Source: Gemmatimonadota bacterium (GTDB lineage: Bacteria > Gemmatimonadota > Gemmatimonadetes > Gemmatimonadales > Gemmatimonadaceae). Taken from it: a DNA stretch of 13,367 bases. Below, piece by piece: positions 1-11,800 of this stretch (the stretch's first letter is position 1; each line of letters starts with the position of its first letter). The DNA lies in assembly GCA_003222065.1 (NCBI GenBank), contig QHUV01000087.1, positions 1 to 13,367 of the forward strand, given 5' to 3'. The position numbers and the translations under genes are program-made. The notes below the pieces were generated by a model that saw only the letters and a program-made list of their open reading frames with translations, did no database searches and had not been told where the DNA came from.

Positions 1-416
1 CGCCAACCGATGTCGAGTGGTCGCCGGCGCCGGGCAAGTTCAGCTTCGGCGATCTCGTTAGGCATCTGGCGACGATCGAGCGGTACATGTACGCCGAGAC
101 GGTGCACGGGCGTCCAAGCGCCTACCCGGGCCATGGCCGCGACCTCGCTGCCGGCTTCGAGGCCACGATCGCGTATTACGACCGCCTTCACGACGAGTCC
201 CGCGCGCTCTTCGCTCAGCTCACCGACGCTCGGCTCGCCGAGAAGTGCCGGACTCCCGCCGACACGCCGATCTCGGTTGGAAAGTGGCTGCGCGCCATGA
301 TCGAACACGAGGCGCATCATCGCGGGCAGATCTACCTGATGCTCGGCATGCGCGGCGTGGCGACCGCGCCTCTCTACGGCCTGACCTCGGAGGAGGTCAA
401 GGCACGCTCGGTCTGA
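1..416 (+). CDS. DinB-family protein, 3' part (5' end outside window)
   Basis: The reading frame is open from base 3 to a TGA at 414-416, so about 137 C-terminal residues are visible and the start lies upstream of the window. The translation shows the four-helix DinB/DUF664 pattern: a first-helix histidine in 'DLVRHLATIE', then near the C-terminus 'IEHEAHHRGQIYLML', whose spaced histidines usually complete a divalent-metal site together with the first one. Family members are small (about 150-180 residues) metal-binding proteins of the DinB/YfiT-like fold. Several are thiol-dependent S-transferases and others are stress-induced proteins of unknown role, so substrate cannot be assigned. The GTT AGG pair at 57-62 lies in a copy of the recurrent CGTTAGGC motif and uses the rare Arg codon AGG. 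It is followed by a long non-coding inverted repeat. Family assignment is fairly sure; function is not. Confidence 0.8.
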   Translation, partial: PTDVEWSPAPGKFSFGDLVRHLATIERYMYAETVHGRPSAYPGHGRDLAAGFEATIAYYDRLHDESRALFAQLTDARLAEKCRTPADTPISVGKWLRAMIEHEAHHRGQIYLMLGMRGVATAPLYGLTSEEVKARSV

Positions 417-451
417 GCAGCAGAGGCGAGAGGTCAGCTCCGCACTTTTCC

Positions 452-663
452 GATGTGCCGCGCACGCATCTCACCCAGGAAAGCGAGCCCAGTTTCGAGA
501 AGGCAGAAGCGAGCAGCGAGCTTTGAGACTGAAGGGTTAGGAATACGAGTTAGGACTCTCCCTCGCTGTCATTCCTCAGCCCTTCGACTCAAGGCTCGCA
601 TCTGTAGGCTGCCTTCTCGAGACTGGGCTCGCTCGCCCGGGTGCGATGCAGACGTGGCGCATC
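452..663. repeat. Long imperfect inverted repeat (two 93-nt arms, 26-nt loop)
   Basis: Bases 452-544 align without gaps to the reverse complement of 571-663, with about 69 of 93 positions identical by hand alignment. The best block is 482-506 against 609-633 (agcgagcccagt...gaaggcag), with one mismatch. The loop is 545-570. This fills most of the 372-base gap between the DinB-like gene and the S9 peptidase gene; I see no credible protein in it, and the small ORFs crossing it have no family features. The element could fold as a long RNA hairpin (blocking readthrough into 789) or be a decayed palindromic mobile repeat. There is no T-run on the right side, so a simple intrinsic terminator is not indicated. 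Confidence 0.8.
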
Positions 664-777
664 AAAAGGCAGGATTTCAGTCTGACTGCCCACCGCTGGT
701 ATCTGAGCGCTGAGGTGTCCTGAACGTTGCGAAGGCGTAACGCGTAAGCGACGTTAACAGTTGCGCCGAAATGAATC

Positions 778-781
778 GGAG
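778..781 (+). promoter_or_regulatory. Ribosome binding site deciding the S9 peptidase start
   Basis: GGAG lies 7 nt before the ATG at 789, a good Shine-Dalgarno spacing. It falls inside the alternative frame that would begin at ATG 771, which itself has no purine-rich site upstream. It therefore favours the shorter protein. Confidence 0.6.
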
Positions 782-788
782 ATCATCG

Positions 789-3146
789 ATGCCTTACGTC
801 CTGCCTACCCGCCGAGCGCAGCGAGTCGCCTGCGCTTCTCTTGCCAGCGCGCTGTTTGCAGCACCACTCGCTGCCCAAACCAAGCCGACGATTGCCCAGT
901 TCTTGAGCCCGTCGTCCCCGCTCGAGCTGACGCGCGCCAAGGATGCCGACCGGGTCGCGTGGGTCGCCTACGAGCGCGGGATGCGCAACGTGTACACGGC
1001 GGCGGCGCCGGAGTTCAGGCCCGTACGCCTAACGAGCTTCATGCAGGACGACGGCACCGATCTCTCCGAGGTCGATCTCTCCGACGACGGCACGACGGCG
1101 ATCTTCCTGCGCGGCACGGCGCCCAATCGCCTGGGCTGGATCGCGAATCCATCACACGACCCGACCGGCGCCGAACGCACGGTGTGGGCCGTTCGAACGG
1201 CCGGCGGAGGCGCACCCTGGCGCGTCGCGGCGGCGAACGGCGCGACGCTCGCGCCCGATGGGCGCTCGGTGCTCTATGTAAAGGACGGACAGATCTTCCG
1301 CGCGCGCATCCTGCCTAACGCGCAAGCCCCCGCGGGCGATACGTTGACGCCGTTCATCAAGGAGTGGGGGCGGCAAAGCAATCCGCGCTGGTCGCCGGAC
1401 GGGACGAAGATCGCCTTCGTGAGCGACCGCGACAATCACTCCTTCATCGGCATCTACGACATGCGGACGCGGCGCGTCGACTTCGTGGCGCCGAGCGTGG
1501 ATTGTGACGCCGCGCCGGCCTGGTCGGCGGACTCGAAGCGCATCGCCTTTCTGCGTCGCCCCGGCGTGCCATTCGGCATGCAGTCGCAGGAGGGGAGTGG
1601 CGGCATCGGCAATCCACCAGGACCCGCCACCGGTCGCGGCGGGCGGGGCAGTGTCGGCGGATGCCTCGCGTCCGCATTCGGGCGCGGTGGCGGCGGGAGC
1701 GGACGTGGGGAAGCACGCGTCGAGGACACGACGCGCTTCCGGCGCTTTCCGGGTCTTTACCGTGCCACGTTCAAGGGCGGTTACAATCTGTCCGTCATGG
1801 TCGCCGACGTGTCTCGTTGCCCGGCGTCGTCCGGAGCGACGGAAGCTGGTGGAACTGAGTGCTCGGCGCGCGAGTTGTGGCACAACGCACCTAACGACGA
1901 GAAGTTCGCTGGGATGCGCGCGGTCATCTGGGCGGGCGACAACGTGATCTTCCCACTCTCGGCCCCGGACGACGAATGGGACCGCTACTATACGATCGAC
2001 ACGACGAATCCGGCCTCCGGTCCCGTGATGCTCACGACGACGAACGGGTTGATCGAGGACCCGACATCCGCGGCACTCTCGCGCGATGGCAAGACGCTCT
2101 ACTACTGCACGAACGCCAACGACATCGAGAAGCGGCACATCTGGAGTGTGCCGACGACCGGAGGCACGCCCAAACAAGTCTCGACCGACGACGGGATCGA
2201 GACGACGCCCCAGCCGCTGGCGTCGGGCAAGCAGCTCGCGGTGCTCTACTTCGGCGCGGCGCAGCCGGCGTCGGTCGGCCTCGTTTCGACGACCGGCGGC
2301 GCGACGCGCGTCGTGTTCCCGATGCTGCCGAAAGACTTCCCGACGGCGGCGCACGTCACGCCGCAGATCGTGATCGTGAAGTCGCCGGACAGTTTAGAGA
2401 TTCATAACCAGCTCTTCCTGCCCAAGGACGTGAAGCCGGGCGAGCGCCGGCCGGCGATGATCTTCGTCCACGGCGGGCCCGTTAGGCAGATGCTCCCGGG
2501 GTATCACTACATGCAGTTCTACCACTGGGCGTATGCGTACAACCAGTGGCTCGCCAATCAGGGTTATGTCGTTCTCTCGGTGAACTATCGCAGCGGAATC
2601 GGCTACGGCCGGTCATTCCGCAACGCGGCGAACACCAACGCGCGCGGCAACTCCGAGTATCAGGACGTGCTCGCGGCCGGGAAGTATCTCCAATCGCGTC
2701 CGGACGTCGATCCGGCGCGCATCGGCATCTGGGGGCTGTCCTACGGCGGACTCCTCACGTCGCAGGCGCTGGCGCGGAATTCGGATCTCTTTGTCGCCGG
2801 GGCTGACCTCGCCGGCGTCCATCTTTACGGAAATTCGCTCGACACGACGAACGTCTCATACCAATCGTCGGCGATTTCGGCAATCGATAAGTGGAAGTCG
2901 CCGGTGTTCCTCGTTCAGGGCGACGACGACCGCAACGTCGACTTCGCGCAGATGGTAGGACTCGTGCAACTGCTGCGCGCGCATAACGTGTACTACGAGC
3001 TGACCGTGATTCCGGACGACACGCACGAATCGCTGATTCACGCCCGCTGGATCGACACCTTCGGCAAGATGGGAGACTTCCTGCACCGGTTCGTGTGGGA
3101 TCGAGGCAGCCCGGCAGCGCAGGCGACGTCGAGCGGGACGAAGTAG
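789..3146 (+). CDS. Secreted S9-family prolyl oligopeptidase-type serine peptidase
   Basis: This 785-residue exported serine peptidase has an N-terminal signal peptide (basic start, hydrophobic core, 'APLAAQ' cleavage region near residue 30). A beta-propeller follows with PD40-like repeats such as 'PRWSPDGTKIAF' and 'PAWSADSKRIAF' around residues 195-260. The C-terminal alpha/beta-hydrolase domain starts near residue 545 ('MIFVHGG'). The catalytic triad is visible: Ser651 in 'GLSYGG', Asp714 in 'QGDDDRNVDF' and His746 in 'DDTHES'. The start at 789 was chosen because GGAG at 778-781 lies 7 nt upstream; the ATG at 771 has no ribosome site. Family members cleave short peptides, often after Pro or Ala (DPP IV/acylaminoacyl-peptidase-like), and here would act in the periplasm or outside. 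An odd Gly/Pro/Arg-rich low-complexity stretch (about residues 268-312) interrupts the propeller. Exact peptide specificity is not readable. Confidence 0.9.
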   Translation: MPYVLPTRRAQRVACASLASALFAAPLAAQTKPTIAQFLSPSSPLELTRAKDADRVAWVAYERGMRNVYTAAAPEFRPVRLTSFMQDDGTDLSEVDLSDDGTTAIFLRGTAPNRLGWIANPSHDPTGAERTVWAVRTAGGGAPWRVAAANGATLAPDGRSVLYVKDGQIFRARILPNAQAPAGDTLTPFIKEWGRQSNPRWSPDGTKIAFVSDRDNHSFIGIYDMRTRRVDFVAPSVDCDAAPAWSADSKRIAFLRRPGVPFGMQSQEGSGGIGNPPGPATGRGGRGSVGGCLASAFGRGGGGSGRGEARVEDTTRFRRFPGLYRATFKGGYNLSVMVADVSRCPASSGATEAGGTECSARELWHNAPNDEKFAGMRAVIWAGDNVIFPLSAPDDEWDRYYTIDTTNPASGPVMLTTTNGLIEDPTSAALSRDGKTLYYCTNANDIEKRHIWSVPTTGGTPKQVSTDDGIETTPQPLASGKQLAVLYFGAAQPASVGLVSTTGGATRVVFPMLPKDFPTAAHVTPQIVIVKSPDSLEIHNQLFLPKDVKPGERRPAMIFVHGGPVRQMLPGYHYMQFYHWAYAYNQWLANQGYVVLSVNYRSGIGYGRSFRNAANTNARGNSEYQDVLAAGKYLQSRPDVDPARIGIWGLSYGGLLTSQALARNSDLFVAGADLAGVHLYGNSLDTTNVSYQSSAISAIDKWKSPVFLVQGDDDRNVDFAQMVGLVQLLRAHNVYYELTVIPDDTHESLIHARWIDTFGKMGDFLHRFVWDRGSPAAQATSSGTK

Positions 3147-3178
3147 CGCACTGGTCGACAGCGGACTCACGCTGCACG

Positions 3179-3202
3179 AGCCGCGGCAAAGGAAACGCGG
3201 CT
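3179..3202 (+). terminator. Possible weak hairpin after the S9 peptidase gene
   Basis: GCCGCG (3180-3185) pairs perfectly with CGCGGC (3196-3201) around a 10-nt A-rich loop, and A3179 can pair with T3202. It lies 33 nt after the S9 stop and before the YbjQ-like start. The following bases (ttcctgatctct) are only weakly T-rich, so termination is uncertain; it could also be a processing or stability hairpin. Confidence 0.3.
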
Positions 3203-3232
3203 TCCTGATCTCTCCGTCTCCCAACTGACAAT

Positions 3233-3598
3233 ATGCGTCCATCCCTGACTTTCCTAACGACAACTGAAAACCAGCTTCCCGATTACCGGATACTCGAACG
3301 GTACGGAGTAGTGCGGGGCATTACCGTCCGCTCACGCTCGGTGTTCGGGAGCTTCGGGGCAAAGCTGCAGCAGTTGGTGGGCGGGGACATCACGATATTG
3401 ACCGACCTCTGCGAGCAGACCCGCGCCGCGGCGTTCGATATCGCGGTGGATCACGCCAAGGCGCTTGGCGCCAATGCGTTGATCGCCCTGCGCTACGACG
3501 CGACTGAGATCATGTCCGGGGTCTCGGAAGTGCTCTGCTACGGCACGGCTGTGCGTCTCGTGCCTCTGCGGTCGGATAGCGAACCAACCATGCCATGA
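3233..3598 (+). CDS. YbjQ/UPF0145 (DUF74) family protein
   Basis: This 121-residue protein matches the YbjQ family over nearly its whole length: 'GVVRGITVRSRSVF' near the N-terminus, the middle 'CEQTRAAAFDIAVDHAKALGANALIALRYD', and the C-terminal strand 'LCYGTAVRL'. These are the conserved parts of the family, whose members form compact oligomers and are sometimes labelled 'heavy-metal-binding' without strong proof. There is no signal peptide or membrane segment, so it is predicted cytoplasmic. It starts at ATG 3233 with no clear ribosome site. Its TGA (3596-3598) overlaps the next start as ATGA (3595-3598), implying translational coupling to the GH3 gene. A role in glycoside use is not evident and the pairing may be incidental. 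Confidence 0.85.
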   Translation: MRPSLTFLTTTENQLPDYRILERYGVVRGITVRSRSVFGSFGAKLQQLVGGDITILTDLCEQTRAAAFDIAVDHAKALGANALIALRYDATEIMSGVSEVLCYGTAVRLVPLRSDSEPTMP

Positions 3599-5868
3599 TC
3601 ATGAAGCGGGTGGGCTTCGCCGTCGGCATCGCCTTCGCGACGTCGACCACGTCGGTCGCGCAAAGCCAGCGCCTAACGAACCGCCCTGCCGAGACGCGAT
3701 TTGTCGATTCCGTCCTCGCGCGGATGACGCTCGCCGAAAAGCTCGGCCAACTCAATCAGGTCTCCGGCGCCGGGAACCCGACAGGGCCCGGTGGCGGTGA
3801 GCGTGCCGCGCGCATGGATCAACTCCGTCACGGCGCGATCGGCTCCTTCCTGAACGTCGTCGGCGCGGATACGACCAAGGCCCTGCAGCGCATCGCGGTC
3901 GAGCAATCGCGCCTTCACATCCCGTTGATTTTTGGGCTCGACGTCATTCACGGCATGCGCACGATCTTCCCCGTGCCGCTCGCCGAGGCGGCGAGCTGGG
4001 ATCCGCAGGGAGCTGAGCGCGCGGCCCGGATAGCGGCGGCAGAAGCCGCCGCGATGGGCATAGACTGGACTTTCGCGCCGATGGTCGACATCGCCCGCGA
4101 TCCGCGGTGGGGACGCATCGTCGAGGGGGCCGGCGAAGATCCGTACCTCGGCGCCGCTTTCGCCGCCGCGCGCGTACGCGGATTTCAGGGGAGCGGGCTC
4201 GGCTCGCGCGACGCGATTGCCGCGACGGTGAAGCATTTCGCGGCGTACGGGGCCGCCGAGGGTGGACGCGATTACAACGTCGCCGAGGTGTCGGAGCGGA
4301 CGCTGCGCGACGTCTATCTGCCGCCCTTTCACGCCGCAGTTTGCGCGGATGCCGCGACGTTGATGGCGTCGTTCAATGAGATATCGGGCGTCCCGTCGCA
4401 CGCGAACCGGCATTTGCTCACCGACATCCTGCGCAACGAATGGAAGTTCGATGGAATGGTCGTCAGCGACTGGACGGGGATCGGTGAGCTGCTCAACCAC
4501 GCCGTCGCCGCCGACAGCGCGCAGGCGGGGGACGTCGCGATGCACGCCGGCGTCGACATGGACATGGTGAGTGAAATTTATCTTCACGCGCTGCGGGCAT
4601 CCGTCGCTGCGCGGCGGATGCCGATGGCCGAGATAGATGAAGCAGTTAGGCGTGTGCTTCGCGTCAAGTATCGGCTCGGGCTGTTCACCGACCCGTACCT
4701 TCGGCGCGATGCGGCGCGCGAACGCACGGCGATTCTCACGACCGAGAACCGCGCGGCGGCGCGCGAGGCGGGACGTCGCGCCATCGTCCTGCTCAAGAAC
4801 GATCAGTCGACGCTGCCGCTGCGAAAGGACGTCGCCTCGCTCGCCGTACTCGGCGCCCTCGCCGCGGATTCCGCGGTCGTGCTCGGCAACTGGACAGCCC
4901 TTGGTCGACGGGAGGATGCCGTGCCCGTCCTCGATGGAATTCGCCGCGCGGTGTCGTCTCGCACGACGGTCACCTATGCACGCGGTGCGAGCCCGACGAG
5001 CGACGACAGCAGCGGCATCGCCGAAGCCGTGCGCGTCGCGAGCGGCGCGGACGCCGTGGTGCTCGTCGTCGGTGAGACGGGTGAGATGAGCGCCGAGGCG
5101 GAGAGCCGATCGCGGCTCGATCTGCCGGGCGCGCAGAAGGAGCTCGTCGCGGCGATTCGCGCCACCGGAAAGCCGATGGTCGTCGTCTTGATGAACGGCC
5201 GGCCGCTCGCGATCGAGCGGATGCAAGAGACGGTGCCGGCGATCCTCGAGACATGGTTCCTCGGCGTCGAGGCGGGCAACGCCATCGCCGACGTGCTCTT
5301 CGGAGACGCGAATCCAGGCGGCAAGTTGCCTGTCACCGTCCCGCGCGTGGTCGGTCAGGTTCCGATCTACTACAACCACAAGAACACCGGTCGCCCGCCG
5401 ACGACGGAGAAGTACACGTCGAAGTACTGGGACATTCCCTACACGCCCCTCTATCCGTTCGGCTTTGGGCTGAGTTACACGACGTTCGCCTATAGCGTGC
5501 CGCGTCTGAGTGCAACGACCATCGGCGCGGGTGACTCGCTGCGCGTCGAGGTGGACGTCACGAACACCGGCAGCCGCGCCGGCGACGAAGTGGCGCAGCT
5601 GTACGTGCGTGACGACGTTGGCAGCGTGACGCGTCCCGTGATGGAGCTGAAGCGCTTTCAGCGTCTGACGCTGCGGCCTGGCGAGCGAAGGACGCTACGC
5701 TGGTCGCTCGGCATCGGCGACCTCGCGTTCTACGACCTCGTGATGCGCCGTGTGGCCGAGCCGGGGACGTTCCGAGTTTTTGTCGGTACCAATTCCGCTG
5801 ACACGCACTCGGCGCCGTTCACCTTGCGGGGTATGGCGAGCATTCCCGTTCCCGATAGGTGCCCCTGA
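3595..5868 (+). CDS. bglX: Secreted GH3 beta-glucosidase, BglX type
   Basis: The 757-residue length is typical of BglX. Order: signal peptide ('GFAVGIAFATSTTSVAQ', probable cleavage about residue 23); GH3 TIM-barrel domain ('KLGQL', 'IPLIFGLDVIHG', 'FAPMVDIARDPRWGRI', 'EGAGEDPYLG', 'VKHFAAYGAAEGGRDYN'); the nucleophile Asp292 in 'GMVVSDWTG'; the alpha/beta sandwich domain with 'GETGEMSAEAESR' (Glu501 is the likely acid/base) and 'LMNGRPL'; then 'YPFGFGLSYTTF' and a C-terminal fibronectin-III-like domain (about residues 640-745). The enzyme removes terminal beta-linked glucose from oligosaccharides, probably in the periplasm. The start ATG overlaps the YbjQ-like stop; no Shine-Dalgarno is visible, so coupling to the upstream gene is likely. 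ATG 3601 is an alternative start that would remove two residues. All key residues are present and the gene looks intact. The preferred linkage cannot be read from sequence. Confidence 0.93.
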   Translation: MIMKRVGFAVGIAFATSTTSVAQSQRLTNRPAETRFVDSVLARMTLAEKLGQLNQVSGAGNPTGPGGGERAARMDQLRHGAIGSFLNVVGADTTKALQRIAVEQSRLHIPLIFGLDVIHGMRTIFPVPLAEAASWDPQGAERAARIAAAEAAAMGIDWTFAPMVDIARDPRWGRIVEGAGEDPYLGAAFAAARVRGFQGSGLGSRDAIAATVKHFAAYGAAEGGRDYNVAEVSERTLRDVYLPPFHAAVCADAATLMASFNEISGVPSHANRHLLTDILRNEWKFDGMVVSDWTGIGELLNHAVAADSAQAGDVAMHAGVDMDMVSEIYLHALRASVAARRMPMAEIDEAVRRVLRVKYRLGLFTDPYLRRDAARERTAILTTENRAAAREAGRRAIVLLKNDQSTLPLRKDVASLAVLGALAADSAVVLGNWTALGRREDAVPVLDGIRRAVSSRTTVTYARGASPTSDDSSGIAEAVRVASGADAVVLVVGETGEMSAEAESRSRLDLPGAQKELVAAIRATGKPMVVVLMNGRPLAIERMQETVPAILETWFLGVEAGNAIADVLFGDANPGGKLPVTVPRVVGQVPIYYNHKNTGRPPTTEKYTSKYWDIPYTPLYPFGFGLSYTTFAYSVPRLSATTIGAGDSLRVEVDVTNTGSRAGDEVAQLYVRDDVGSVTRPVMELKRFQRLTLRPGERRTLRWSLGIGDLAFYDLVMRRVAEPGTFRVFVGTNSADTHSAPFTLRGMASIPVPDRCP

Positions 5869-5900
5869 GACTAGTGGCCTGGGCGGCAAGCTCTGACAAA

Positions 5901-6029
5901 GCGTGATCGCGGACTCACACGGACACTCACGGACAGACACGGAGGAACCAGCAAACAGGCTCGAAATCAACACTCTAGGTCTTTGTCCGTGTCCGTCCGT
6001 TTATTGTCCGCGTTCGTCCGCGATCACGC
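5901..6029. repeat. Intergenic inverted repeat with TCCG-rich arms
   Basis: A perfect 13-bp arm (5901-5913, gcgtgatcgcgga) pairs with 6017-6029. The pairing continues imperfectly inward (about 5914-5943 with 5986-6016), both sides built of repeated CGGAC / GTCCG words. The loop is about 5944-5985. It lies between the bglX stop and the convergently oriented small gene ending at 6083, so it could act as a bidirectional terminator or RNA-processing hairpin. It also looks like a member of a dispersed family: its right part recurs at 11091-11119. Confidence 0.75.
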
Positions 6030-6034
6030 TGTTG
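6006..6034 (+). repeat. Dispersed repeat, copy A
   Basis: The 17-mer gtccgcgttcgtccgcg at 6006-6022 is identical to 11091-11107. Extended to 6034 the match is 27 of 29 bases with 11091-11119, ending in acgctgttg in both. Copy A forms the right arm of the inverted repeat after bglX. Confidence 0.8.
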
Positions 6035-6044
6035 ATCCTCGAAG

Positions 6045-6073
6045 CAGATGCCCCGCGCAGCGCTCGGGATGAC
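6045..6073. repeat. REP-like degenerate element after the TCCG repeat
   Basis: The pattern cagatgcc...gctcgggatgac resembles the two elements at 10997-11028 and 11034-11058 (gatcctt...aggatgac). In both places it lies immediately next to a copy of the TCCG-rich repeat, although in the opposite order. It is degenerate, so this is a moderate call. Confidence 0.45.
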
Positions 6074-6082
6074 ATCCAGGCT

Positions 6083-6322
6083 TCAGCGCGCCTTGGCCTT
6101 CGGCAATCCGCGCTTGGTCGTCCTGAGCCACTTCTCGGCCGCTCGTAAGGCCGAGCCTTTGCCGCCGTGGCCTGCGTCGCCGAAGAAGGCGCTCGCCTTG
6201 GGGCGCCAACCTTTGGTCGTCTTTCGATAGCCGACGCGCACGAAGTACCCGTGCGTGCGAGAAGTTTCCTGGTCGATGCGGCTGATGCCGGAGGGAAGCG
6301 AGCGACTGTTGGTCTGTGTCAT
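6083..6322 (-). CDS. Small AP2-domain-like DNA-binding protein
   Basis: Read on the minus strand from ATG 6322, this gives 79 residues, one compact domain: 'GISRIDQ', then 'RTHGYFVRVGYR', then 'AFFGDAGHGGKGSALRAAEKW' and a basic tail. This order (three beta strands with Arg/Trp-type contacts, then an amphipathic helix after 'GGK..AL.AA') is the bacterial AP2/ERF-like domain pattern, a DNA-binding fold also found in homing-endonuclease and integrase proteins. Here it stands alone without a nuclease or integrase part, so it may be a small regulator or chromatin-type protein. A GTG at 6361 would add 13 residues including a His run; neither start has a good ribosome site and I prefer ATG 6322. 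It is the only minus-strand gene in the window. Its 3' end abuts repeat sequence. The family call is from recognition of motif order, not a search. Confidence 0.7.
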   Translation of the reverse strand: MTQTNSRSLPSGISRIDQETSRTHGYFVRVGYRKTTKGWRPKASAFFGDAGHGGKGSALRAAEKWLRTTKRGLPKAKAR

Positions 6323-6498
6323 GAGGCAGTTCGTCGAATGGTGATGGTGACGCAACGGCACGCGTGTCGGGAGACGTTAGGCAATCGTCGTCGGCAGGCG
6401 GCGAGCGGACGCAGCCGGCACGTCGTCGTGCAGTTGGTTGCTCGTCTTCATGTACAGACTGATAGCGCAAATCGTTTGTCGTTTGGCGTTAAGAAAGC

Positions 6499-6527
6499 TT
6501 GACATGACAGCGGCGAATGGGTATGCT
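6499..6527 (+). promoter_or_regulatory. Sigma70-type promoter for tRNA-Asn
   Basis: A perfect -35 box TTGACA (6499-6504) is followed by exactly 17 bp and a -10 box TATGCT (6522-6527, 4 of 6 matches to TATAAT). The expected start is about 6534, about 60 nt before the tRNA. It is the best promoter match I noticed in the window and fits a strongly expressed stable RNA. The 273 bases from 6323 to 6595 hold this promoter, the hairpin at 6540-6571 and one copy of the CGTTAGGC motif, and no credible gene. Confidence 0.75.
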
Positions 6528-6539
6528 CGCGAATATTCG

Positions 6540-6571
6540 CCCGCGGAGACGGATCCTGCGGGTTTTTGTTT
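6540..6571 (+). terminator. Terminator-like hairpin in the tRNA leader
   Basis: CCCGC (6540-6544) pairs with GCGGG (6558-6562) around a 13-nt loop, followed at once by TTTTTGTTT (6563-6571). This is intrinsic-terminator architecture with a short stem. It lies downstream of the promoter and 24 nt before the tRNA, so it could attenuate tRNA transcription, end a very short RNA, or stop transcription arriving from upstream. A 12-bp palindrome gcgaatattcgc (6529-6540) directly precedes it. Confidence 0.5.
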
Positions 6572-6595
6572 GAGCGAGAGTGGTGAACACATTTT

Positions 6596-6668
6596 TGGGG
6601 TGTAGGTCAATTGGCAGACCGCCCGACTGTTAATCGGGAAGTTGGAGGTTCGAGTCCTCCCGCCCCAG
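6596..6668 (+). tRNA. tRNA-Asn(GUU)
   Basis: The full 73-nt cloverleaf can be drawn. The acceptor stem is 6596-6602 with 6661-6667 (one G-U pair) and discriminator G6668. The D stem is GGTC 6605-6608 with GACC 6617-6620. The anticodon stem is CCCGA 6622-6626 with TCGGG 6634-6638, with loop CTGTTAA placing anticodon GTT at 6629-6631. The T stem is GGAGG 6644-6648 with CCTCC 6656-6660, enclosing TTCGAGT. CCA is not encoded and must be added after transcription. It has its own promoter upstream. I see no integrase gene or duplicated tRNA 3' end nearby, so it does not look like a used integration site in this window. Confidence 0.96.
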
Positions 6669-6727
6669 CTTCGCTCGCTGGCGCTCGCTTCTGAAGGACT
6701 GGCAGGTTAGGCTCGTACCCTTAGACC

Positions 6728-6732
6728 AGGAG
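6728..6732 (+). promoter_or_regulatory. Ribosome binding site supporting the GTG start at 6739
   Basis: AGGAG sits 6 nt before GTG 6739. It is one of the clearest Shine-Dalgarno sites in the window and decides the non-ATG start of the nitrilase-family gene. Confidence 0.7.
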
Positions 6733-6738
6733 CTGCAG

Positions 6739-7590
6739 GTGCCGGAGTTCACCGCAACGGAATCCGGTACGTCCGCCTCCGCGCCGCCGCTGCGAGCCGC
6801 GCTCGGCGAATACGACATTGGCTGGCATGATCCGGCGACGTCGGTTCAACGAGCGCATGACGTGATCGCCGGCGCGGCGCGCCTGCGCGCGCGACTCGTC
6901 ATCCTCCCCGAGATGTGCACGACCGGCTTCACGATGGAAGGATCCCGCTGGGCCGAGCCACTGTCGACGGAGCATGGCGCGAGTGGCGCGCTGGCCGCGG
7001 CGGCGCGCGAGCATCACCTGTGGGTCCTCGCCGGGCTCTCGCTGCGCGAAGAGTCGCCGTCGCGATTGGTGAACGCGGCGGTGCTGTTCGATCCCGCGGG
7101 AAGCGTCGCCGCCATCTATCGCAAGCAGCGGCTCTTCACTTACGCGGGAGAGCAAGAGGTCTATACCGCGGGTGACGGACCGGTTGTCGTCACGATCGAG
7201 GGTGCGCGACTCGGACTCTTCATTTGCTACGACCTGCGCTTTCCGGAACTCTTTCGCGCCGTCGCGCCGGATATCGACGCCGCGCTCATCATCGCGAACT
7301 GGCCCGAGCGGCGACGCATGCACTGGGACGTGCTCACACGCGCTCGCGCGATCGAGAATCAGTGCTATGTTGTCGCGGTCAATCGCACCGGCATTGGTGA
7401 CGGGGTCGAGTACGACGGTGGGTCGGTGGCGTACGATCCGTGGGGGGAGCCACTCGGCATCGGCGGCGGCGGCAACGCACCCCGTGTCGTTGACATTGAT
7501 CCCGGACGCGTCAAGTTGGTGCGCGCACGGTATCCCTTCCTCCGTGAGCTGGAAATTGCGCGCGAGGCACAGGTCCCGCAGTTTCATTAG
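6739..7590 (+). CDS. Carbon-nitrogen hydrolase (nitrilase superfamily, omega-amidase/YafV-like)
   Basis: This 283-residue cytoplasmic hydrolase carries the full Glu-Lys-Cys triad of the nitrilase superfamily: Glu58 in 'LPEMCTTGF', Lys129 in 'YRKQRLF' and Cys163 in 'FICYDLRFPE'. The motif 'TGFTMEG..WAEP' right after the Glu, and 'ARAIENQCYVVAVNRTG' near the C-terminus, are close to the YafV/Nit2-type omega-amidases. Those hydrolyse alpha-ketoglutaramate or related omega-amides, a repair step after glutamine transamination. Substrate is inferred from these motifs only; deaminated-glutathione amidase or another amidase is possible. Translation starts at GTG 6739 with AGGAG 6 nt upstream. It begins 70 nt after the tRNA and could be read from the tRNA promoter, since I see no clear terminator between. 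The gene is intact and of usual family length. Confidence 0.9.
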   Translation: MPEFTATESGTSASAPPLRAALGEYDIGWHDPATSVQRAHDVIAGAARLRARLVILPEMCTTGFTMEGSRWAEPLSTEHGASGALAAAAREHHLWVLAGLSLREESPSRLVNAAVLFDPAGSVAAIYRKQRLFTYAGEQEVYTAGDGPVVVTIEGARLGLFICYDLRFPELFRAVAPDIDAALIIANWPERRRMHWDVLTRARAIENQCYVVAVNRTGIGDGVEYDGGSVAYDPWGEPLGIGGGGNAPRVVDIDPGRVKLVRARYPFLRELEIAREAQVPQFH

Positions 7591-7614
7591 ACGTGAGTGC
7601 GTTAGGCAGTTCAC

Positions 7615-7649
7615 TGGCCCCTGGCCCCTGGCCCCTAGCACCTAGCACC
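7615..7649 (+). repeat. Heptanucleotide tandem array (5 units)
   Basis: Three exact TGGCCCC units (7615-7635) are followed by two TAGCACC units (7636-7649) in strict 7-base register. The array lies between the nitrilase stop and the next small ORF. It has no coding role and resembles short heptamer repeats reported between genes in some bacteria. Slippage could vary the copy number. Confidence 0.85.
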
Positions 7650-7657
7650 TCCTTCCA

Positions 7658-7915
7658 TTGACCGTCGGCGAGACGCTGGTCTTCATTCGCGACACGCGCG
7701 TCTTCGAGTGCACGCTCTACTTTCGCGTCGCCGAGTTGATCGGCTTCGAGCGGGATGAGCTGCACTGGGAGGCCTTTTGGAGCGTGCGGGTCGACGGGGT
7801 GCTCTTCGGATCACTGCAGCTACTCGACTTTCAGGAACGCGCCGCCCAGATCGAGCAGCGCGTCGTGCACTGGTACCGGAGCGAACGAATCCGGCGCGCC
7901 AGTCGCGAGGTTTAG
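7658..7915 (+). CDS. Small protein of unknown function, possibly cut at its 3' end
   Basis: This 85-residue ORF is not recognised. The codons have the strongly G/C-ending third positions of its neighbours, so it is probably real. It is predicted soluble, rich in aromatic and acidic residues ('WEAFWSVRVDGVLF', 'VVHWYRSERI'), with no signal peptide, membrane segment or cysteine motif. The only visible start is TTG 7658, without a Shine-Dalgarno site, directly after the heptamer array. Its stop (TAG 7913-7915) lies exactly where recognisable symporter sequence begins. If a deletion fused the two regions, both the last residues and the stop could be products of the junction and the original protein longer. 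Confidence 0.5.
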   Translation: MTVGETLVFIRDTRVFECTLYFRVAELIGFERDELHWEAFWSVRVDGVLFGSLQLLDFQERAAQIEQRVVHWYRSERIRRASREV

Positions 7916-7917
7916 CC

Positions 7918-9465
7918 GGCGCATCGGGGGCGAAGTACGGGATCGCGACGAGTCATTTCTACTGGGTGGGCGCGATCCCGGCGATGGTGTTCGTCGCCCT
8001 GTTCATGATGCCGTTCTATTACGGTTCGCGCGCGCGGTCCGTCCCCGAATACCTGAAGCTGCGCTTCGACGAGAAGACACGCACCCTGAACGCCGTGTCG
8101 TTCGCGGTAATGACTGTTTTCTCATCAGGGATCTCGATGTACGCACTGGGGAAGCTCCTCAACTTATTGCTTGGGTGGAGCTTCGATGCGAGCATCCTCG
8201 TGTCCGCGGTCATCGTGCTCTCGTATATCCTGCTCGGCGGCCTAACGAGTGCGATTTACAATGAGGTGCTTCAGTTCTTCCTCATCGTCTTCGGCTTTTT
8301 CCCGCTCGTCTGGCTCGGGCTCACCGCCGTTGGCGGGTGGCACGGTCTATCGACGCAGCTCGCCGCGATCTCGACGACGCGCGGCTTTCCCGCCGACGCC
8401 TACACGCACGCCTGGCGGACAATGGGGAGCGCCTCGCAGAATCCCATTGGCGTCGAGTGGTTCGGGCTCGTGATGGGACTCGGCTTCGTGCTGTCGTTTG
8501 GCTACTGGTGCACGGACTTTCTCGTCGTGCAGCGGGCGATGGCGGCCGAGTCGATGACCGCCGCGCGACGCACGCCCCTCATCGCCGCCCTCCCCAAGAT
8601 GTTCTTTCCCTTCCTGGTCATTCTCCCGGGGATGATCGCGCTCGTCCTCAGCGGCGCGCACGGGGTGGGCCAGGGATTGATTCCGGCAAAGCTGACCGCC
8701 GCGGGCACACCACTGATCGACGTCTCCGGACACCCGGTGCTCGACTACGACTTGGCGACGCCGATGCTGCTGTTGCGTCTCTTTCCGACCGGCATGCTCG
8801 GCCTGGGCCTAACGGCGCTCCTTGCGTCGTTCATGTCGGGTATGGCCGGGAACGTGACGGCGTTCAACACGGTGTGGACCTACGACATCTATCAGGCGCA
8901 CATTCGCAAGGGCGCGTCCGACGCGCACTATCTGTGGATGGGACGCGCCGCCACGGTGGCGGGGATCGTGCTCGCGATCGCGGCGGCGTACGTCGCCAGC
9001 GCGTTCAACAACATCATGGACCTGTTGCAGCTCGTGTTCGCATTCGTGAATGCGCCTCTCTTCGCGACGTTTTCGCTCGGTATGTTCTGGAGACGGACGA
9101 CGGGCCACGGGGCGTTCACGGGACTGCTCTGCGGCACGTTAGGCGCCGCGGTCCATCACGGCCTCACGCTCCCAGCTGGGGCGAGCGCCGGCATCAAGGG
9201 TGGGTATCTCGCGGTGGTCCACACCTATCCGAGTGAGCTGGCGCAAACGTTCTGGACAGCGATCACGGCGTGGACGACGTGCATGGTCATCACGATCGTC
9301 GTGAGTCTGATGACGCAGCCGCGTCCGGACGAGGAGCTCCGCGGTCTCGTCTATGCGTTGACGCCTCGGCAACGCGACAGTGAGCATAACTTCTGGAAGC
9401 GTCCGGCTACACTCGGCGTCATTGTCCTCGTAATGACTCTGCTCCTTAACTTCGTGTTTTTCTAA
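7918..9465 (+). CDS. Sodium:solute symporter (SSS family), N-terminal transmembrane part missing
   Basis: About 515 residues of an SSS-family (SglT/PutP-like) sodium-coupled transporter are present, with many hydrophobic helices. The homologous sequence begins abruptly at 'ASGAKYGIATSHFYWVGAIPAM' (7921 on), then 'RSVPEYLKLRFDEKTR', the Na2-site-like helix 'SFMSGMAGNVTAFNTVWTYDIY', and a complete C-terminal end. A normal family member has roughly 70-90 more residues in front, including the first two membrane helices, one of which contributes to the sodium site. None of the three forward frames upstream encodes them. The same frame runs open back to a TTG at 7777, but that stretch is the out-of-frame shadow of the small ORF at 7658-7915. 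There is no ATG near 7918. It is therefore likely a 5'-deleted pseudogene, or a deletion or misjoin in the assembly. Substrate (sugar, amino acid or other) is unknown; nearby glycoside genes suggest sugar. Confidence 0.8.
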   Translation, partial: GASGAKYGIATSHFYWVGAIPAMVFVALFMMPFYYGSRARSVPEYLKLRFDEKTRTLNAVSFAVMTVFSSGISMYALGKLLNLLLGWSFDASILVSAVIVLSYILLGGLTSAIYNEVLQFFLIVFGFFPLVWLGLTAVGGWHGLSTQLAAISTTRGFPADAYTHAWRTMGSASQNPIGVEWFGLVMGLGFVLSFGYWCTDFLVVQRAMAAESMTAARRTPLIAALPKMFFPFLVILPGMIALVLSGAHGVGQGLIPAKLTAAGTPLIDVSGHPVLDYDLATPMLLLRLFPTGMLGLGLTALLASFMSGMAGNVTAFNTVWTYDIYQAHIRKGASDAHYLWMGRAATVAGIVLAIAAAYVASAFNNIMDLLQLVFAFVNAPLFATFSLGMFWRRTTGHGAFTGLLCGTLGAAVHHGLTLPAGASAGIKGGYLAVVHTYPSELAQTFWTAITAWTTCMVITIVVSLMTQPRPDEELRGLVYALTPRQRDSEHNFWKRPATLGVIVLVMTLLLNFVFF

Positions 9466-9496
9466 GAGCTGCTTTCTAACCTCTTCCGGGAAAGCG

Positions 9497-9799
9497 ATGA
9501 GCGGCGCTGCATCACTCGATCTGCGTCTACCGATTGGCGGGCTGTTCACCGCGCTCGGCCTCCTCGTCGGCGGCTATGGCCTTGCGACGAACGGCGACCG
9601 CGCGCTGTACGAGACATCGCTGTCGATCAACATCAATTTGTGGTGGGGAATCGTGATGTTCGTCGTTGGCCTGCTGATGTTGACGTTAGGCATGCGCGCG
9701 ACGCGAGCGAAGCACCCGTCATCCGCGGAGCCGGCGATGGAGTCGCCCGCGGGCCGCGCGACGGAGCAGCGCGAACGAGACACCGGTCTGGAGCGCTGA
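9497..9799 (+). CDS. Small two-helix membrane protein next to the symporter
   Basis: This 100-residue protein has two predicted membrane helices: about residues 12-31 ('LPIGGLFTALGLLVGGYGLA') and about 48-68 ('LWWGIVMFVVGLLMLTLGM'), separated by a loop with 'SININLWWG', and a charged C-terminal tail. It starts 31 nt after the symporter stop, at ATG 9497 with a weak GGGAAAG upstream. I recall similar small proteins with 'RLPIG...INLWWG' motifs beside SSS symporters in Acidobacteria and Gemmatimonadota, so a role as a small partner or stabiliser of the transporter is plausible but unproven. Its stop TGA (9797-9799) overlaps the probable CTG start of the next gene. TTA at 9686-9688 (T-L-G) lies in a copy of the CGTTAGGC motif. 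Confidence 0.75.
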   Translation: MSGAASLDLRLPIGGLFTALGLLVGGYGLATNGDRALYETSLSININLWWGIVMFVVGLLMLTLGMRATRAKHPSSAEPAMESPAGRATEQRERDTGLER

Positions 9800-10986
9800 C
9801 GGAGCTCTCGCTCGCCGAAGCCCGGCGCATCGCCCTCGGAGCGCAGGGCTTTGGTGGCACTCGTCAAAGGCGGCGCGTCGACGCGGCGCGGCTTGCGAGA
9901 GTACTGCGAACGATCGGCGTCCTGCAGCTCGACTTCGTCAACGTGCTCGTGCCGGCGCACTATCTCATCCCGTTCTCCCGCGTCGGACCGTACGACAGAA
10001 AGCTGCTCGACGAAGTGATGTATCGGAGCGGAGAGTTCGTGGAGCACGTCGCGCACGAGGCGTCGGTCGTGCCGGTGGAGCACTGGCCGCTCCTGCGCCC
10101 ACGCCCGACCGATCGCCGGGTGCGCGCGCTCGATGCTTTCATGTCCAAACGCGTCGCTTACGCGGCGCGGATCCTCGAGGCAGTACGAGCACAGGGTCCG
10201 CTCGCCGCGGATGGTGCGCCGGCCTCGGATGAGCCCGAGCCGGAGCGCGACTGGTGGGGCTGGAGCGTCGCCAGGGCGACGCTCGAGGGACACTTCTACC
10301 AGGGCACGCTCGCGGTTGCAGGCCGGCGCTCCGACTTCGCACGCCTCTACGACCTCGCCGAGCGCGTGATTCCCGAGCCGCATTTTGCGCGACGCGTCAC
10401 GATCGACGAGGCCGAGCGGGCGTTGCTCGCGGAGGCGGCGCGCTCGTTAGGCGTCGGCACCGCCGCCGATCTCGCCGACTATTATCGTCTGCCCCTGCGT
10501 AGCGCGCGCCGACGCCTCGCCGAGTTGGCGAGCGAGGGGGTGCTCCGTGAGGTGCGCGTCGACGGCTGGCGGGATGCAGCATTCTTGTATCCGACGGCCA
10601 AGGCCATGACCGTTGAGGTGCAAGCCGTCCTCTCGCCGTTCGATCCCCTCGTCTGGTACCGTCCACGCGCCGAGCGGCTGTTCGGGTTCGACTATCGGAT
10701 CGAGATCTACGTCCCGCGGGCGAAGCGCCGTTGGGGTTATTACGTGTTGCCATTTCTCCTCGGTGACGCGCTCGTTGCGCGCGTCGATCTCAAAGCCGAT
10801 CGCGGCCGACGGAAGCTCCTCGTGTTGGCGGCCCACGCCGAACGCGGAGTGAAGGTTGGCACGGTCGCCGAGCCGCTCGCTGAGGAGTTGCGCGTGCTCG
10901 GCGCCTGGCTTGGACTCGATGCCGGCGTGGCCGTCGAGCGACGTGGGAATCTGGCAAAGCCTCTGTCCGGCGCGATTCTGGCATGA
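9796..10986 (+). CDS. ycaQ: YcaQ/AlkZ-type winged-helix DNA glycosylase
   Basis: About 396 residues match the HTH_42/AlkZ-like family of DNA glycosylases that remove alkylated bases and unhook interstrand crosslinks. Key features: 'LSLAEARRIALGAQGF' at the N-terminus; the catalytic-type motif Gln-Leu-Asp in 'GVLQLDFVNV' (the Q-x-D version of YcaQ rather than Q-x-Q of antibiotic-cluster AlkZ); 'HYLIPFSRVGPYD'; 'EHVAHEASVVP'; winged-helix repeats in the middle; and 'LSPFDPLVWYRPRAERLFGFDYRIEIYVP' near the end. It acts on chromosomal DNA in the cytoplasm. The start is a problem: the frame is open back to GTG 9640, but homology begins right after 9798 and no ATG, GTG or TTG lies there. CTG 9796, overlapping the preceding TGA as CTGA, is the most natural start. 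Otherwise a 52-residue extension overlapping the membrane-protein gene must be assumed. Family call is firm; start is not. Confidence 0.88.
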   Translation: MTELSLAEARRIALGAQGFGGTRQRRRVDAARLARVLRTIGVLQLDFVNVLVPAHYLIPFSRVGPYDRKLLDEVMYRSGEFVEHVAHEASVVPVEHWPLLRPRPTDRRVRALDAFMSKRVAYAARILEAVRAQGPLAADGAPASDEPEPERDWWGWSVARATLEGHFYQGTLAVAGRRSDFARLYDLAERVIPEPHFARRVTIDEAERALLAEAARSLGVGTAADLADYYRLPLRSARRRLAELASEGVLREVRVDGWRDAAFLYPTAKAMTVEVQAVLSPFDPLVWYRPRAERLFGFDYRIEIYVPRAKRRWGYYVLPFLLGDALVARVDLKADRGRRKLLVLAAHAERGVKVGTVAEPLAEELRVLGAWLGLDAGVAVERRGNLAKPLSGAILA

Positions 10987-10996
10987 CGGACGAGCT

Positions 10997-11058
10997 GATC
11001 CTTCGTCGCTGTCGCACCTCAGGACAACCAGCAGATCCTTCGCTTCGCCCAGGATGAC
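10997..11058. repeat. Two degenerate REP-like palindromic elements
   Basis: Element 1 (10997-11028) and element 2 (11034-11058) share the pattern gatcctt...cgc...(c)aggatgac, in which ATCCT can pair with AGGAT. The sequence is like a dispersed repeat seen in many soil-bacterial genomes, recalled rather than searched. They fill most of the 67-base gap after the glycosylase stop, and element 2 contains the ATG of the following lipoprotein gene. Confidence 0.6.
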
Positions 11059-11800
11059 GGGAGATAATCGTCCGCGTCTGTCCGTGTTCCGTCCGCGTTC
11101 GTCCGCGCTGACGCTGTTGCTTGTTGTGCTCTGTGGGCTCGCGTTAGGCTGCAAAGTCGTCATTCAACACGCAGACGACAGTGCTCGCGACACTACTCGG
11201 AGCGACACGACCGTCAGCCTGACATCGCTGCCGTCCAAGCCAATCGTGCTGCCGCAGGAATCGCTTCCGGCGCCGCCGCATCCGTCGCTCGCGAATGGCG
11301 ACATCGCCGATACGACGCCGTCGGTGACAACACAGCTCGACCTGGCGATCCTGCGCGAGGAGCTGGTGATTCCCCTCGCCGGCGTTAAACCCTCTGATCT
11401 GCGTGACACCTTCAACGAGGTGCGTGGCGGCGGGAAGCGGAAGCACGAAGCCTTGGACATCATGGCGCCGCGTGGCACACCCGTGCTCTCGGCGTCGGCG
11501 GGACGCGTCCTCCGGCTCCACAATAGCAAGGATGGCGGCCTCATGGTCTACGCGGCCGACGCGAGCAATCGGTTCGTGCTCATGTACGCGCACCTCGACC
11601 GCTATGCGGACGGCATGCGGGATAGCCTCCCCTTGCGGCAGGGCCAAGTGATCGGCTATGTGGGAACGACAGGGAACGCGCCGCCGAATGCGCCGCATCT
11701 TCATTTCGCCATTGCCCACCCGAGCGATGTCAAACTCTGGTGGACGGGCACGGCGATCGATCCGCGTCCGCTGTTGCAACGGCCGGGTGTGGCACAGTAG
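11054..11800 (+). CDS. M23-family peptidoglycan endopeptidase, predicted lipoprotein
   Basis: From ATG 11054 the product is 248 residues. A basic N-terminus and hydrophobic segment (about residues 18-31) lead to a lipobox-like 'LALGC' with Cys33, so it is probably a membrane-anchored lipoprotein. After a linker, the LytM/peptidase M23 domain shows the zinc-site pattern: His and Asp in 'KHEALDIMAPRGTPV', 'MYAHLDRYA', and the His-x-His of 'PHLHFAI', with 'GQVIGYVGTTGNAPPNAPHLHF' as the classic core. Such enzymes cut cell-wall peptide crosslinks or activate amidases during growth and division. The frame is open upstream to 10856, but that part overlaps the glycosylase gene. ATG 11054 has no good ribosome site and lies in repeat sequence; residues 6-22 are encoded by a copy of a dispersed repeat. 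The lipobox Leu-Gly is encoded by TTA GGC from a CGTTAGGC motif. Confidence 0.87.
   Translation: MTGDNRPRLSVFRPRSSALTLLLVVLCGLALGCKVVIQHADDSARDTTRSDTTVSLTSLPSKPIVLPQESLPAPPHPSLANGDIADTTPSVTTQLDLAILREELVIPLAGVKPSDLRDTFNEVRGGGKRKHEALDIMAPRGTPVLSASAGRVLRLHNSKDGGLMVYAADASNRFVLMYAHLDRYADGMRDSLPLRQGQVIGYVGTTGNAPPNAPHLHFAIAHPSDVKLWWTGTAIDPRPLLQRPGVAQ
11091..11119 (+). repeat. Dispersed repeat, copy B, inside a signal-peptide coding region
   Basis: This matches 27 of 29 bases with 6006-6034. Here it is translated as part of the N-terminus of the M23 lipoprotein, and additional TCCG words precede it from about 11070. Confidence 0.8.

What the first reader, a model, noticed from the sequence alone, without database searches (positions are those of the whole stretch)
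57..11149. CGTTAGGC is strongly over-represented and overrides codon choice: a candidate genome-wide DNA signal
I count 15 GTTAGGC sites on the two strands, 13 of them CGTTAGGC, plus two CGTTAGG variants. At about 66% GC, chance predicts roughly 1.6 of the 7-mer and about 0.5 of the 8-mer in 13.4 kb on both strands. Twelve of 15 are inside genes and fall in different frames and orientations: GTT AGG (V-R) at 57, 2481 and 4645; TTA GGC (L-G) at 9138, 9685, 10446 and 11143; CTA ACG (L-T) at 1027, 3671, 8240 and 8807; CCT AAC (P-N) at 1313. They bring in TTA, CTA and AGG, codons otherwise rare here, so the constraint is on DNA, not protein. The density (about one per 0.9 kb) and two-strand placement resemble DNA uptake sequences. 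A recombination (Chi-like), methylation or nucleoid-protein site is also possible. A strongly polar KOPS-like role fits less well, given a 10:5 strand split.
Basis: partly seen in the sequence, partly recalled or inferred. Interest (0 to 1): 0.78.

Follow-up and report, generated by a model that had tools for sequence, protein, structure and literature searches.

The report
Genome-wide eight-letter DNA signal word
Some soil bacteria of the phylum Gemmatimonadota carry one exact eight-letter DNA word hundreds to thousands of times, kept even at the cost of rare codons; it behaves like a self-recognition tag for DNA uptake, which would be new for this phylum, but what reads it is not shown.

Summary
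CGTTAGGC occurs 13 times in the window (shuffle mean 0.32) and 2065 times in the window's 3.73 Mb genome, against 226 for the letter-reversed control. It is the top 8-mer outlier in the three rich genomes sampled at depth (20-24 times a 3rd-order Markov expectation). Of 395 genomes of the phylum, 23 reach 0.1 sites per kb (17 in the window's family, 6 in another). In coding DNA the excess over synonymous-codon shuffles is 14- to 24-fold; the word holds 40% of TTA codons in the window's genome and 71-88% in two GC-richer ones. Within genera, sites are kept in 37 of 55 comparisons against 746 of 2751 for same-composition words; between genera they turn over. Strand polarity is absent or weak. 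A published methylome of one rich species lists no such m6A motif; 11 of 13 rich f1 genomes tested show neither RecC nor an AddAB-type nuclease. Best reading: an uptake-sequence-like word spread by transformation (about 0.5). Unexplained: the same word forms integron attC cores, in rich and poor genomes.

The parts
56..63 (+). CGTTAGGC site, V-R frame (DinB-family ORF 3-416)
   Evidence: gene name; conserved in L015/L140 (G361)
1027..1034 (-). CGTTAGGC site, L-T frame (peptidase S9 ORF 771-3146)
   Evidence: gene name; conserved in G361, one change in G242
1313..1320 (-). CGTTAGGC site, P-N frame (ORF 771-3146)
   Evidence: conserved in G242 and G361 with changed flanks
2480..2487 (+). CGTTAGGC site, V-R frame (ORF 771-3146)
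   Evidence: conserved in G242, not in G361
3671..3678 (-). CGTTAGGC site, L-T frame (glycosyl hydrolase family 3 ORF 3595-5868)
   Evidence: gene name; conserved in G242
4645..4651 (+). GTTAGGC site preceded by A (7-mer only), V-R frame (ORF 3595-5868)
   Evidence: 7-mer conserved in G242 and G361
6375..6382 (+). CGTTAGGC site outside the recognised genes (overlapping mechanical ORFs there have no established identity)
   Evidence: no Pfam hit for ORF 6024-6470; core conserved in G242 and G361 while flanks differ
6706..6712 (+). GTTAGGC site preceded by G (7-mer only), between the tRNA and ORF 6739-7590
   Evidence: not conserved in G242
7600..7607 (+). CGTTAGGC site just after the carbon-nitrogen hydrolase ORF 6739-7590
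   Evidence: gene name; conserved in G242 and G361
8240..8247 (-). CGTTAGGC site, L-T frame (sodium:solute symporter ORF 7777-9465)
   Evidence: gene name; conserved in G361, one change in G242
8807..8814 (-). CGTTAGGC site, L-T frame (ORF 7777-9465)
   Evidence: conserved in G242, one change in G361
9137..9144 (+). CGTTAGGC site, L-G frame with TTA codon (ORF 7777-9465)
   Evidence: conserved in G242, not in G361
9684..9691 (+). CGTTAGGC site, L-G frame with TTA codon (ORF 9497-9799, no Pfam hit)
   Evidence: not conserved in G242 or G361
10445..10452 (+). CGTTAGGC site, L-G frame with TTA codon (AlkZ-like DNA glycosylase ORF 9640-10986)
   Evidence: gene name; no aligned relative
11142..11149 (+). 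CGTTAGGC site, L-G frame with TTA codon (peptidase M23 ORF 10856-11800)
   Evidence: gene name; no aligned relative
1890..1896 (-). near-match CGTTAGG followed by T (read on the minus strand)
3253..3259 (-). near-match CGTTAGG followed by A (read on the minus strand)

Best explanation
YGTTAGGC (Y mostly C) is a genome-wide DNA self-recognition word of the DNA-uptake-sequence type. Inferred mechanism: a protein at the surface or in the periplasm, most simply a minor type IV pilin, binds the word, so that DNA of the same lineage is taken up preferentially. Homologous recombination then replaces site-less alleles by site-bearing ones, so copies build up by molecular drive on both strands, in genes and between them, until protein constraint stops them. 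Lineages without a receptor of this specificity sit at the chance level. Shown here: the enrichment, its action on DNA and not on protein, strand balance, conservation within genera with turnover between genera, patchy presence, and PilT and ComEC genes in most genomes tested. Not shown: uptake, natural transformation in these organisms, and the receptor.
For: Density is 0.55 per kb in G000, 0.60 in G080, 0.87 in G200; copy numbers fit Neisseriaceae uptake sequences, 943 to 5918 per genome (PMC3630211, one section read). Top 8-mer in three genera, no longer conserved flank. No strand polarity on the G080 chromosome (chi2 20.3, 20 df, p 0.44). In coding DNA 14-24 times the synonymous-shuffle null. 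Density outside my gene calls is 2.1-4.3 times that inside for G245, G080 and the KBS708 megaplasmids. Kept in 37 of 55 within-genus comparisons against 746 of 2751 controls, with turnover between genera. Kept at 0 of 7 aligned positions in poor G229, which has 3 sites in its genome. Present on megaplasmids and on a 15-kb integrative element at chromosomal density or above. PilT family in 36 of 36 and ComEC domain in 44 of 50 genomes tested. One-mismatch words add up to expectation (G000 114 vs 105.7, G245 375 vs 404.9), so the word is sharp; in K. oralis near misses add only 21% to the DUS hits, a different measure.
Against: PilT and ComEC occur in poor genomes as well; ComEC was missed in 4 of 23 rich genomes (G258, G355, G358, G168, all fragmented assemblies, G258 95% complete) and in 2 of the 27 others. 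No receptor was found; the GspH family is patchy in rich and poor alike (25 of 36). Close inverted pairs, common for uptake sequences (recalled), are not in excess. Poor genomes G019, G159 and G004 show no word of comparable strength, so no dialects. In G000 coding density (0.74 per kb) exceeds noncoding (0.53). Across genera, conservation is not above control (G080 1 of 10 vs 61 of 390; G245 0 of 3). The G245 strand test is not clean (p 0.04). Searches for uptake words in this phylum found no paper; natural transformation was searched only with the name Gemmatirosa (2 papers, one opened, not about it).
Confidence: 0.5

Rival explanations
1. An intracellular recombination or end-processing signal: a Chi-like word read by a machine other than RecBCD, AddAB or AdnAB that handles double-strand ends, protecting self DNA and starting recombination.
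For: Non-palindromic 8-mer, over-represented inside genes, also dense on a mobile element. Conserved positions.
Against: PDDEXK_1 (AddAB/AdnAB type) in 0 of 13 rich f1 genomes, including the complete G080, and RecC in 2 of those 13. Of the rich f2 genomes, G155 has AddAB-type hits and G041, G109, G133 none. Of 13 poor f1 genomes, 6 have PDDEXK_1, the reverse of the expectation (Fisher p 0.015, related genomes). No strand bias in G080. These family searches could miss very divergent enzymes.
Confidence: 0.15
2. A HIP1-like word driven by base modification or mismatch repair: a methyltransferase or repair enzyme acts at the word and biases mutation towards it.
For: HIP1 in cyanobacteria is a highly iterated octamer tied to orphan methyltransferases, and a repair-bias origin has been proposed (PMC4390886, passages seen). 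m5C would escape standard SMRT detection (general knowledge).
Against: The KBS708 methylome lists only RGATCY, ATGCAC and CCAGN7TCA, as m6A motifs (PMC3974934, whole text). The word is not palindromic. Where poor G229 lacks a site it differs by 2-5 letters of 7, more than one biased repair step; but some within-genus losses are single letters.
Confidence: 0.13
3. Integron-linked: the genomic words are core sites for the integron integrase, or remnants of cassette insertion.
For: The word equals the attC core in f2 arrays and in most attC-like sites found near integrase genes in rich and poor f1 genomes. A large integron on the 1.1 Mb KBS708 replicon is in print (PMC9024848, passage seen).
Against: Genomic sites have no conserved flank, close opposite-strand pairs are not in excess, and they lie in frame in called genes. 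Integrase over the cut-off occurs in many poor genomes (G019, G159, G004, G027 and others), while rich G133 (97% complete) has none over the cut-off.
Confidence: 0.07
4. A nucleoid-protein or chromosome-organisation site bound throughout the genome.
For: Genome-wide, both strands, conserved within genera, present on megaplasmids as well.
Against: Whole genera and one species beside rich ones in a genus lack it, unlike an essential organiser. KOPS-type polarity is absent and sites occur in every sampled stretch of the G080 and G245 main contigs.
Confidence: 0.12

Closest known systems
DNA uptake sequences (DUS) of Neisseriaceae
   Same: Hundreds to thousands of copies of one word, also within genes, and some relatives lack it (PMC3630211, passages and one section); on both strands (recalled).
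   Different: 8 letters, not 10-12; the same word in two families and not dialects; no excess of inverted pairs; uptake unproven; different phylum.
Uptake signal sequences (USS) of Pasteurellaceae
   Same: A genome-wide word that marks self DNA (start of the abstract of PMC7811141 seen in the listing).
   Different: No conserved flanking tracts as recalled for USS; uptake unproven.
HIP1 of cyanobacteria (GCGATCGC)
   Same: A highly iterated octamer with exceptions among relatives and an uncertain role (PMC4390886, passages).
   Different: Not a palindrome; not among the m6A motifs of KBS708.
Chi sites
   Same: Short non-palindromic words over-represented in genomes (recalled).
   Different: No strand bias in G080; the reading enzymes are not found in most rich genomes tested.
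Integron attC core sites (GTTRRRY, consensus recalled)
   Same: Identical core word in Gemmatimonadota integrons.
   Different: Genomic sites are mostly single, without the attC hairpin.

Membership tests
DNA uptake sequences (DUS/USS) | One short word, far over-represented genome-wide | tested here: met
DNA uptake sequences (DUS/USS) | Both strands, no replication polarity | tested here: met
   G080 chi2 p 0.44; G245 p 0.04, mostly from two of 21 stretches
DNA uptake sequences (DUS/USS) | Uptake machinery encoded | tested here: inconclusive
   PilT 36 of 36; ComEC 19 of 23 rich and 25 of 27 other genomes
DNA uptake sequences (DUS/USS) | DNA with the word is taken up or transforms better | not testable with these tools
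   needs an experiment
DNA uptake sequences (DUS/USS) | A receptor that binds the word (ComP in Neisseria) | not tested
   only a GspH family tally, not discriminating
DNA uptake sequences (DUS/USS) | Inverted pairs, often terminators (common, not defining; recalled) | tested here: not met
   opposite-strand pairs within 60 nt: 1, 2, 2 and 2 in four samples against 1.9, 3.6, 3.9 and 2.5 at random
Chi site of RecBCD/AddAB/AdnAB | The genome encodes the reading enzyme | tested here: not met
   PF12705 in 0 of 13 and PF04257 in 2 of 13 rich f1 genomes
KOPS | Strong strand polarity along the replichore | tested here: not met
HIP1-type methylation-linked octamer | Methylated by an orphan methyltransferase | tested here: inconclusive
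   not among the m6A motifs of KBS708; m5C not assessed
HIP1-type methylation-linked octamer | Palindrome | tested here: not met
   the word itself
Integron attC site | Paired R'' and R' cores forming a hairpin | tested here: not met
   genomic sites lack conserved flanks and close inverted partners; attC-like hairpins found in 7 of 20 f1 integrase regions

The most novel reading that the evidence does not exclude
The genome-wide self-recognition word and the integron recombination core are one word for a reason: in Gemmatimonadota the uptake receptor came to read the cassette end, or cassettes are under selection to carry the uptake word. Integron cassettes would then be tagged for uptake, and in rich lineages the same word has spread by drive through chromosome, megaplasmids and mobile elements.
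Probability: 0.12. Interest if true: 0.92.

Novelty: new variant of a known kind. Interest (0 to 1): 0.78.

Why it matters
If it is an uptake word, it would be, as far as I recall, the first outside Neisseriaceae and Pasteurellaceae, and would imply word-guided DNA exchange in an abundant, hardly cultured soil phylum. The yes-or-no distribution between relatives makes the gain and loss of such a word testable by comparative genomics. A cultured species with a complete genome and a published methylome (G. kalamazoonensis KBS708) carries about 4470 copies (G080), so experiments are possible. If it is not an uptake word, a strong unknown force on DNA sequence remains, strong enough to account for most TTA codons in the sampled genes of G245 and KBS708.

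Tried and rejected
Chi of RecBCD/AddAB type: enzymes not found in most rich genomes tested. KOPS-like polarity: not seen. m6A methylation target: not in the published methylome. Integron integrase as the driver: present in rich and poor alike. attC remnants: no conserved flanks, no excess of close inverted pairs. Competence genes as discriminators: PilT and ComEC occur in rich and poor. Another word in the poor genomes: none of comparable strength in samples of G019, G159 or G004. Viral relatives of the 15-kb element: none for the primase-like protein, one weak hit for the long protein, not used. A first RpoB tree took wrong reading frames for five rows and was replaced. Literature: CGTTAGGC as a string gave 163 papers, of which 20 were listed, none on this subject by title; Gemmatimonadetes with uptake, octamer or attC terms, and GTTAGGC with uptake, gave none.
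Full report
OBSERVATION. The window holds 13 CGTTAGGC and 15 GTTAGGC sites, with shuffle means of 0.32 and 0.69. The two near variants and the GC content (64.9%) were checked. In the window's own genome, G000 (3,732,969 bases in 736 contigs, about 82% complete), the word occurs 1079 + 986 times against 112 + 114 for the same letters read backwards.

IS IT THE TOP WORD? In 147,824 sampled bases of G000 the word is the strongest 8-mer (93 against 4.1 by a 3rd-order Markov model). In 420,000 bases of G245 it is again first (173 against 8.6), on the G080 chromosome too (209 against 8.7 in 400,000 bases), and in 150,000 bases of two KBS708 megaplasmids (94 against 3.8). Flanks carry no further conserved letters beyond a 5' pyrimidine and a weak 3' purine. 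One-letter variants add up to expectation under a 2nd-order model (G000 114 vs 105.7, G245 375 vs 404.9). Single variants above it are mostly at the ends: T at position 1 in G245 (42 vs 1.3), A and G there in both genomes, T and G at position 8 in G000 (11 and 6 vs 0.9 each), T at position 6 in G000 (9 vs 2.0), A and T at position 7 in G245 (11 and 8 vs 2.7 each). Several inner ones are below it, for example C at position 3 in G245 (5 vs 20.9).

WHO HAS IT? One search scanned 395 genomes of the phylum (drawn evenly from a larger group). By my reading of its table (genome sizes rounded there), 23 reach 0.1 sites per kb: 17 of family f1 (genera g1, g10, g13, g15, g16, g18, g20, g24, g28) and 6 of f2 (five of g41, one of g56). 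G037, G121 and G186 lie near 0.05. The rest have 0-93 sites, usually fewer than the reversed-letter control. For three poor genomes a 2nd-order model on 20 kb each expects 0.07-0.17 sites per 20 kb, that is roughly the 17-26 sites they have, so they sit at chance and are not clearly depleted. Some of the 40-90-site f2 genomes owe clusters to integron arrays. G019, a single contig of 4,636,964 bases, matches the recalled size of G. aurantiaca T-27 and is poor (17 sites). Of 64 named loci, 8 have two or more 7-mers, two of these 8 from Acidobacteriota with 2 each; the densest (L015, 15 in 14.4 kb; L041, 10 in 12.7 kb) are soil MAGs labelled Gemmatimonas. A quick RpoB tree of 28 genomes (G000 39% filled, G012 partial) needs at least 8 changes between rich and poor, with 0.03 per kb as the line, so that G121 and G155 count as rich. 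Rich G200 and G048 group with poor G229 and G033; rich G080 and G245 group with poor G159. Only rich-poor neighbours that I chose are in that tree.

A CONSTRAINT ON DNA. With home-made gene calls (L119 left out), coding sites exceed a synonymous-codon shuffle by 17.4 (G000), 16.5 (G245), 24.0 (G080 chromosome) and 13.7 times (plasmids). In three poor genomes they are 0, 0 and 2 against nulls of 1.1, 0.6 and 1.6. The word holds 31 of 78 TTA codons in G000, 115 of 161 in G245, 104 of 120 in G080 and 35 of 40 on the plasmids. Noncoding density exceeds coding density in G245 (1.15 vs 0.45 per kb), G080 (1.12 vs 0.54) and the plasmids (2.24 vs 0.52), but not in G000 (0.53 vs 0.74).

CONSERVATION AND TURNOVER. 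Within genera the 7-mer is kept in 8 of 12 (window vs G361), 8 of 12 (window vs G242), 5 of 10 and 7 of 11 (L011 vs G361 and G242) and 9 of 10 (L080 vs G358) aligned sites: together 37 of 55, against 746 of 2751 words of the same composition (p about 1e-9). Sites enter twice where two relatives were compared; G242 alone gives p 2e-5 and G361 alone p 9e-4. Read the other way, sites of the relative are kept in G000 in 8 of 16 and 13 of 15 (redundant alignments included) and 5 of 9 and 7 of 8. L015 aligns to the window exactly as the G361 loci do, so they are probably one genome. Between genera conservation is not above control: G080 1 of 10 (61 of 390), G048 2 of 8 (41 of 266), G200 1 of 3, G102 1 of 3, G245 0 of 3, G090 0 of 3, G029 0 of 1; some of these alignments may be paralogues. 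Poor G159 and G019 have 0 of 3 each, poor G229 0 of 7 against 65 of 428. Sites thus come and go, and are held while the lineage keeps the trait.

POLARITY AND SPACING. On 20 stretches of the G080 chromosome strand counts fit an even split (chi2 20.3, 20 df, p 0.44; correlation with GC skew -0.27). In G245 the test gives p 0.04, mostly from stretches L100 and L101 (correlation 0.28). Gaps between sites have a coefficient of variation of 0.78-1.07, close to random. Opposite-strand pairs within 60 nt are not in excess (1, 2, 2, 2 in four samples).

CANDIDATE READERS. PDDEXK_1 (AddAB/AdnAB nuclease) is in 8 of 37 genomes: 0 of 13 rich f1, 6 of 13 poor f1, and 2 of 11 f2 (G155, rich; G013). E. coli is not found by that family, so RecC was searched apart: 4 of 22 genomes, namely G040 and G090 (rich) and G019 and G159 (poor). 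Of the 22 genomes searched for both, 16 show neither. KBS708 has a published methylome: three m6A motifs, none related. PilT is in 36 of 36. ComEC is in 44 of 50: 19 of 23 rich and 25 of 27 others, the four rich misses in fragmented assemblies. GspH-type pilins are in 25 of 36. None of these separates rich from poor.

THE INTEGRON COINCIDENCE. Two f2 genomes hold cassette arrays whose attC ends are GCCTAACR...GTTAGGC, often with a pyrimidine before the G. In 20 f1 regions beside integrase genes my attC finder sees 5 sites in G080, 10 in poor G159, 2 in poor G019, 2 in G200 and 1 each in three further regions; 13 of the 20 have none. The R' cores are mostly GTTAGGC or GTTAGGT. Integrase over the curated cut-off is in 26 of 50 genomes, rich and poor. 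A large integron on the 1.1 Mb KBS708 replicon is in print (PMC9024848, passage). Counting words, an arbitrary octamer contains GTTAGGC on either strand about once in 4096 (my arithmetic); as a match found afterwards, I would not put it below about 1%. It may be chance or may mean that uptake and cassettes share a word.

MOBILE DNA. The 21-kb element of KBS708 is a 14,997-base unit followed by its own repeat. 145 of 150 probes from the unit lie in the first 20 kb of the chromosome contig, and the five misses are neighbours that would fall before the contig's first base (the last is inference). It carries an integrase and a primase-like protein and 14 7-mers (12 8-mers) per unit, 0.93 per kb against 0.60 for the other chromosome stretches, so the word is not confined to core genes.

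CONCLUSION. A real, strong, clade-patchy DNA signal. An uptake-type word spread by transformation explains copy number, strand balance, drive against codon choice, turnover and patchiness with least strain, at about 0.5. The reader protein and uptake itself are unproven.

Noticed in passing
L160 (G138:C5:10000-24000) and L161 (G002:C43): Integron gene-cassette arrays in family f2 with attC sites about 87-132 nt long whose cores equal the genome-wide word.
   Followed up: partly
L079 / L180 (G080): 15-kb integrative element with integrase and primase-like protein, high-copy according to the genome paper, denser in the word than the rest of the sampled chromosome.
   Followed up: partly
window 415-532 and 11020-11120: Interspersed repeats: each of these stretches matches about 20 short places in G242 and G361. 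452-663 is a 93-nt imperfect inverted repeat and 5985-6034 an 84% copy of 11070-11119.
   Followed up: no
window 6596-6669: A tRNA-Asn gene (anticodon gtt) lies beside the intergenic site at 6706.
   Followed up: no
AddAB-type nuclease and RecC are patchy in Gemmatimonadota: 16 of 22 genomes searched for both show neither.
   Followed up: partly
G000:C102:2096-3035: Integron integrase of the window's genome is split over two frames, a frameshift or a sequencing error.
   Followed up: no
G245 sample: TGTTAGGC is a second strong form in G245 (42 against 1.3 expected) but not in G000 (2 against 0.7).
   Followed up: no
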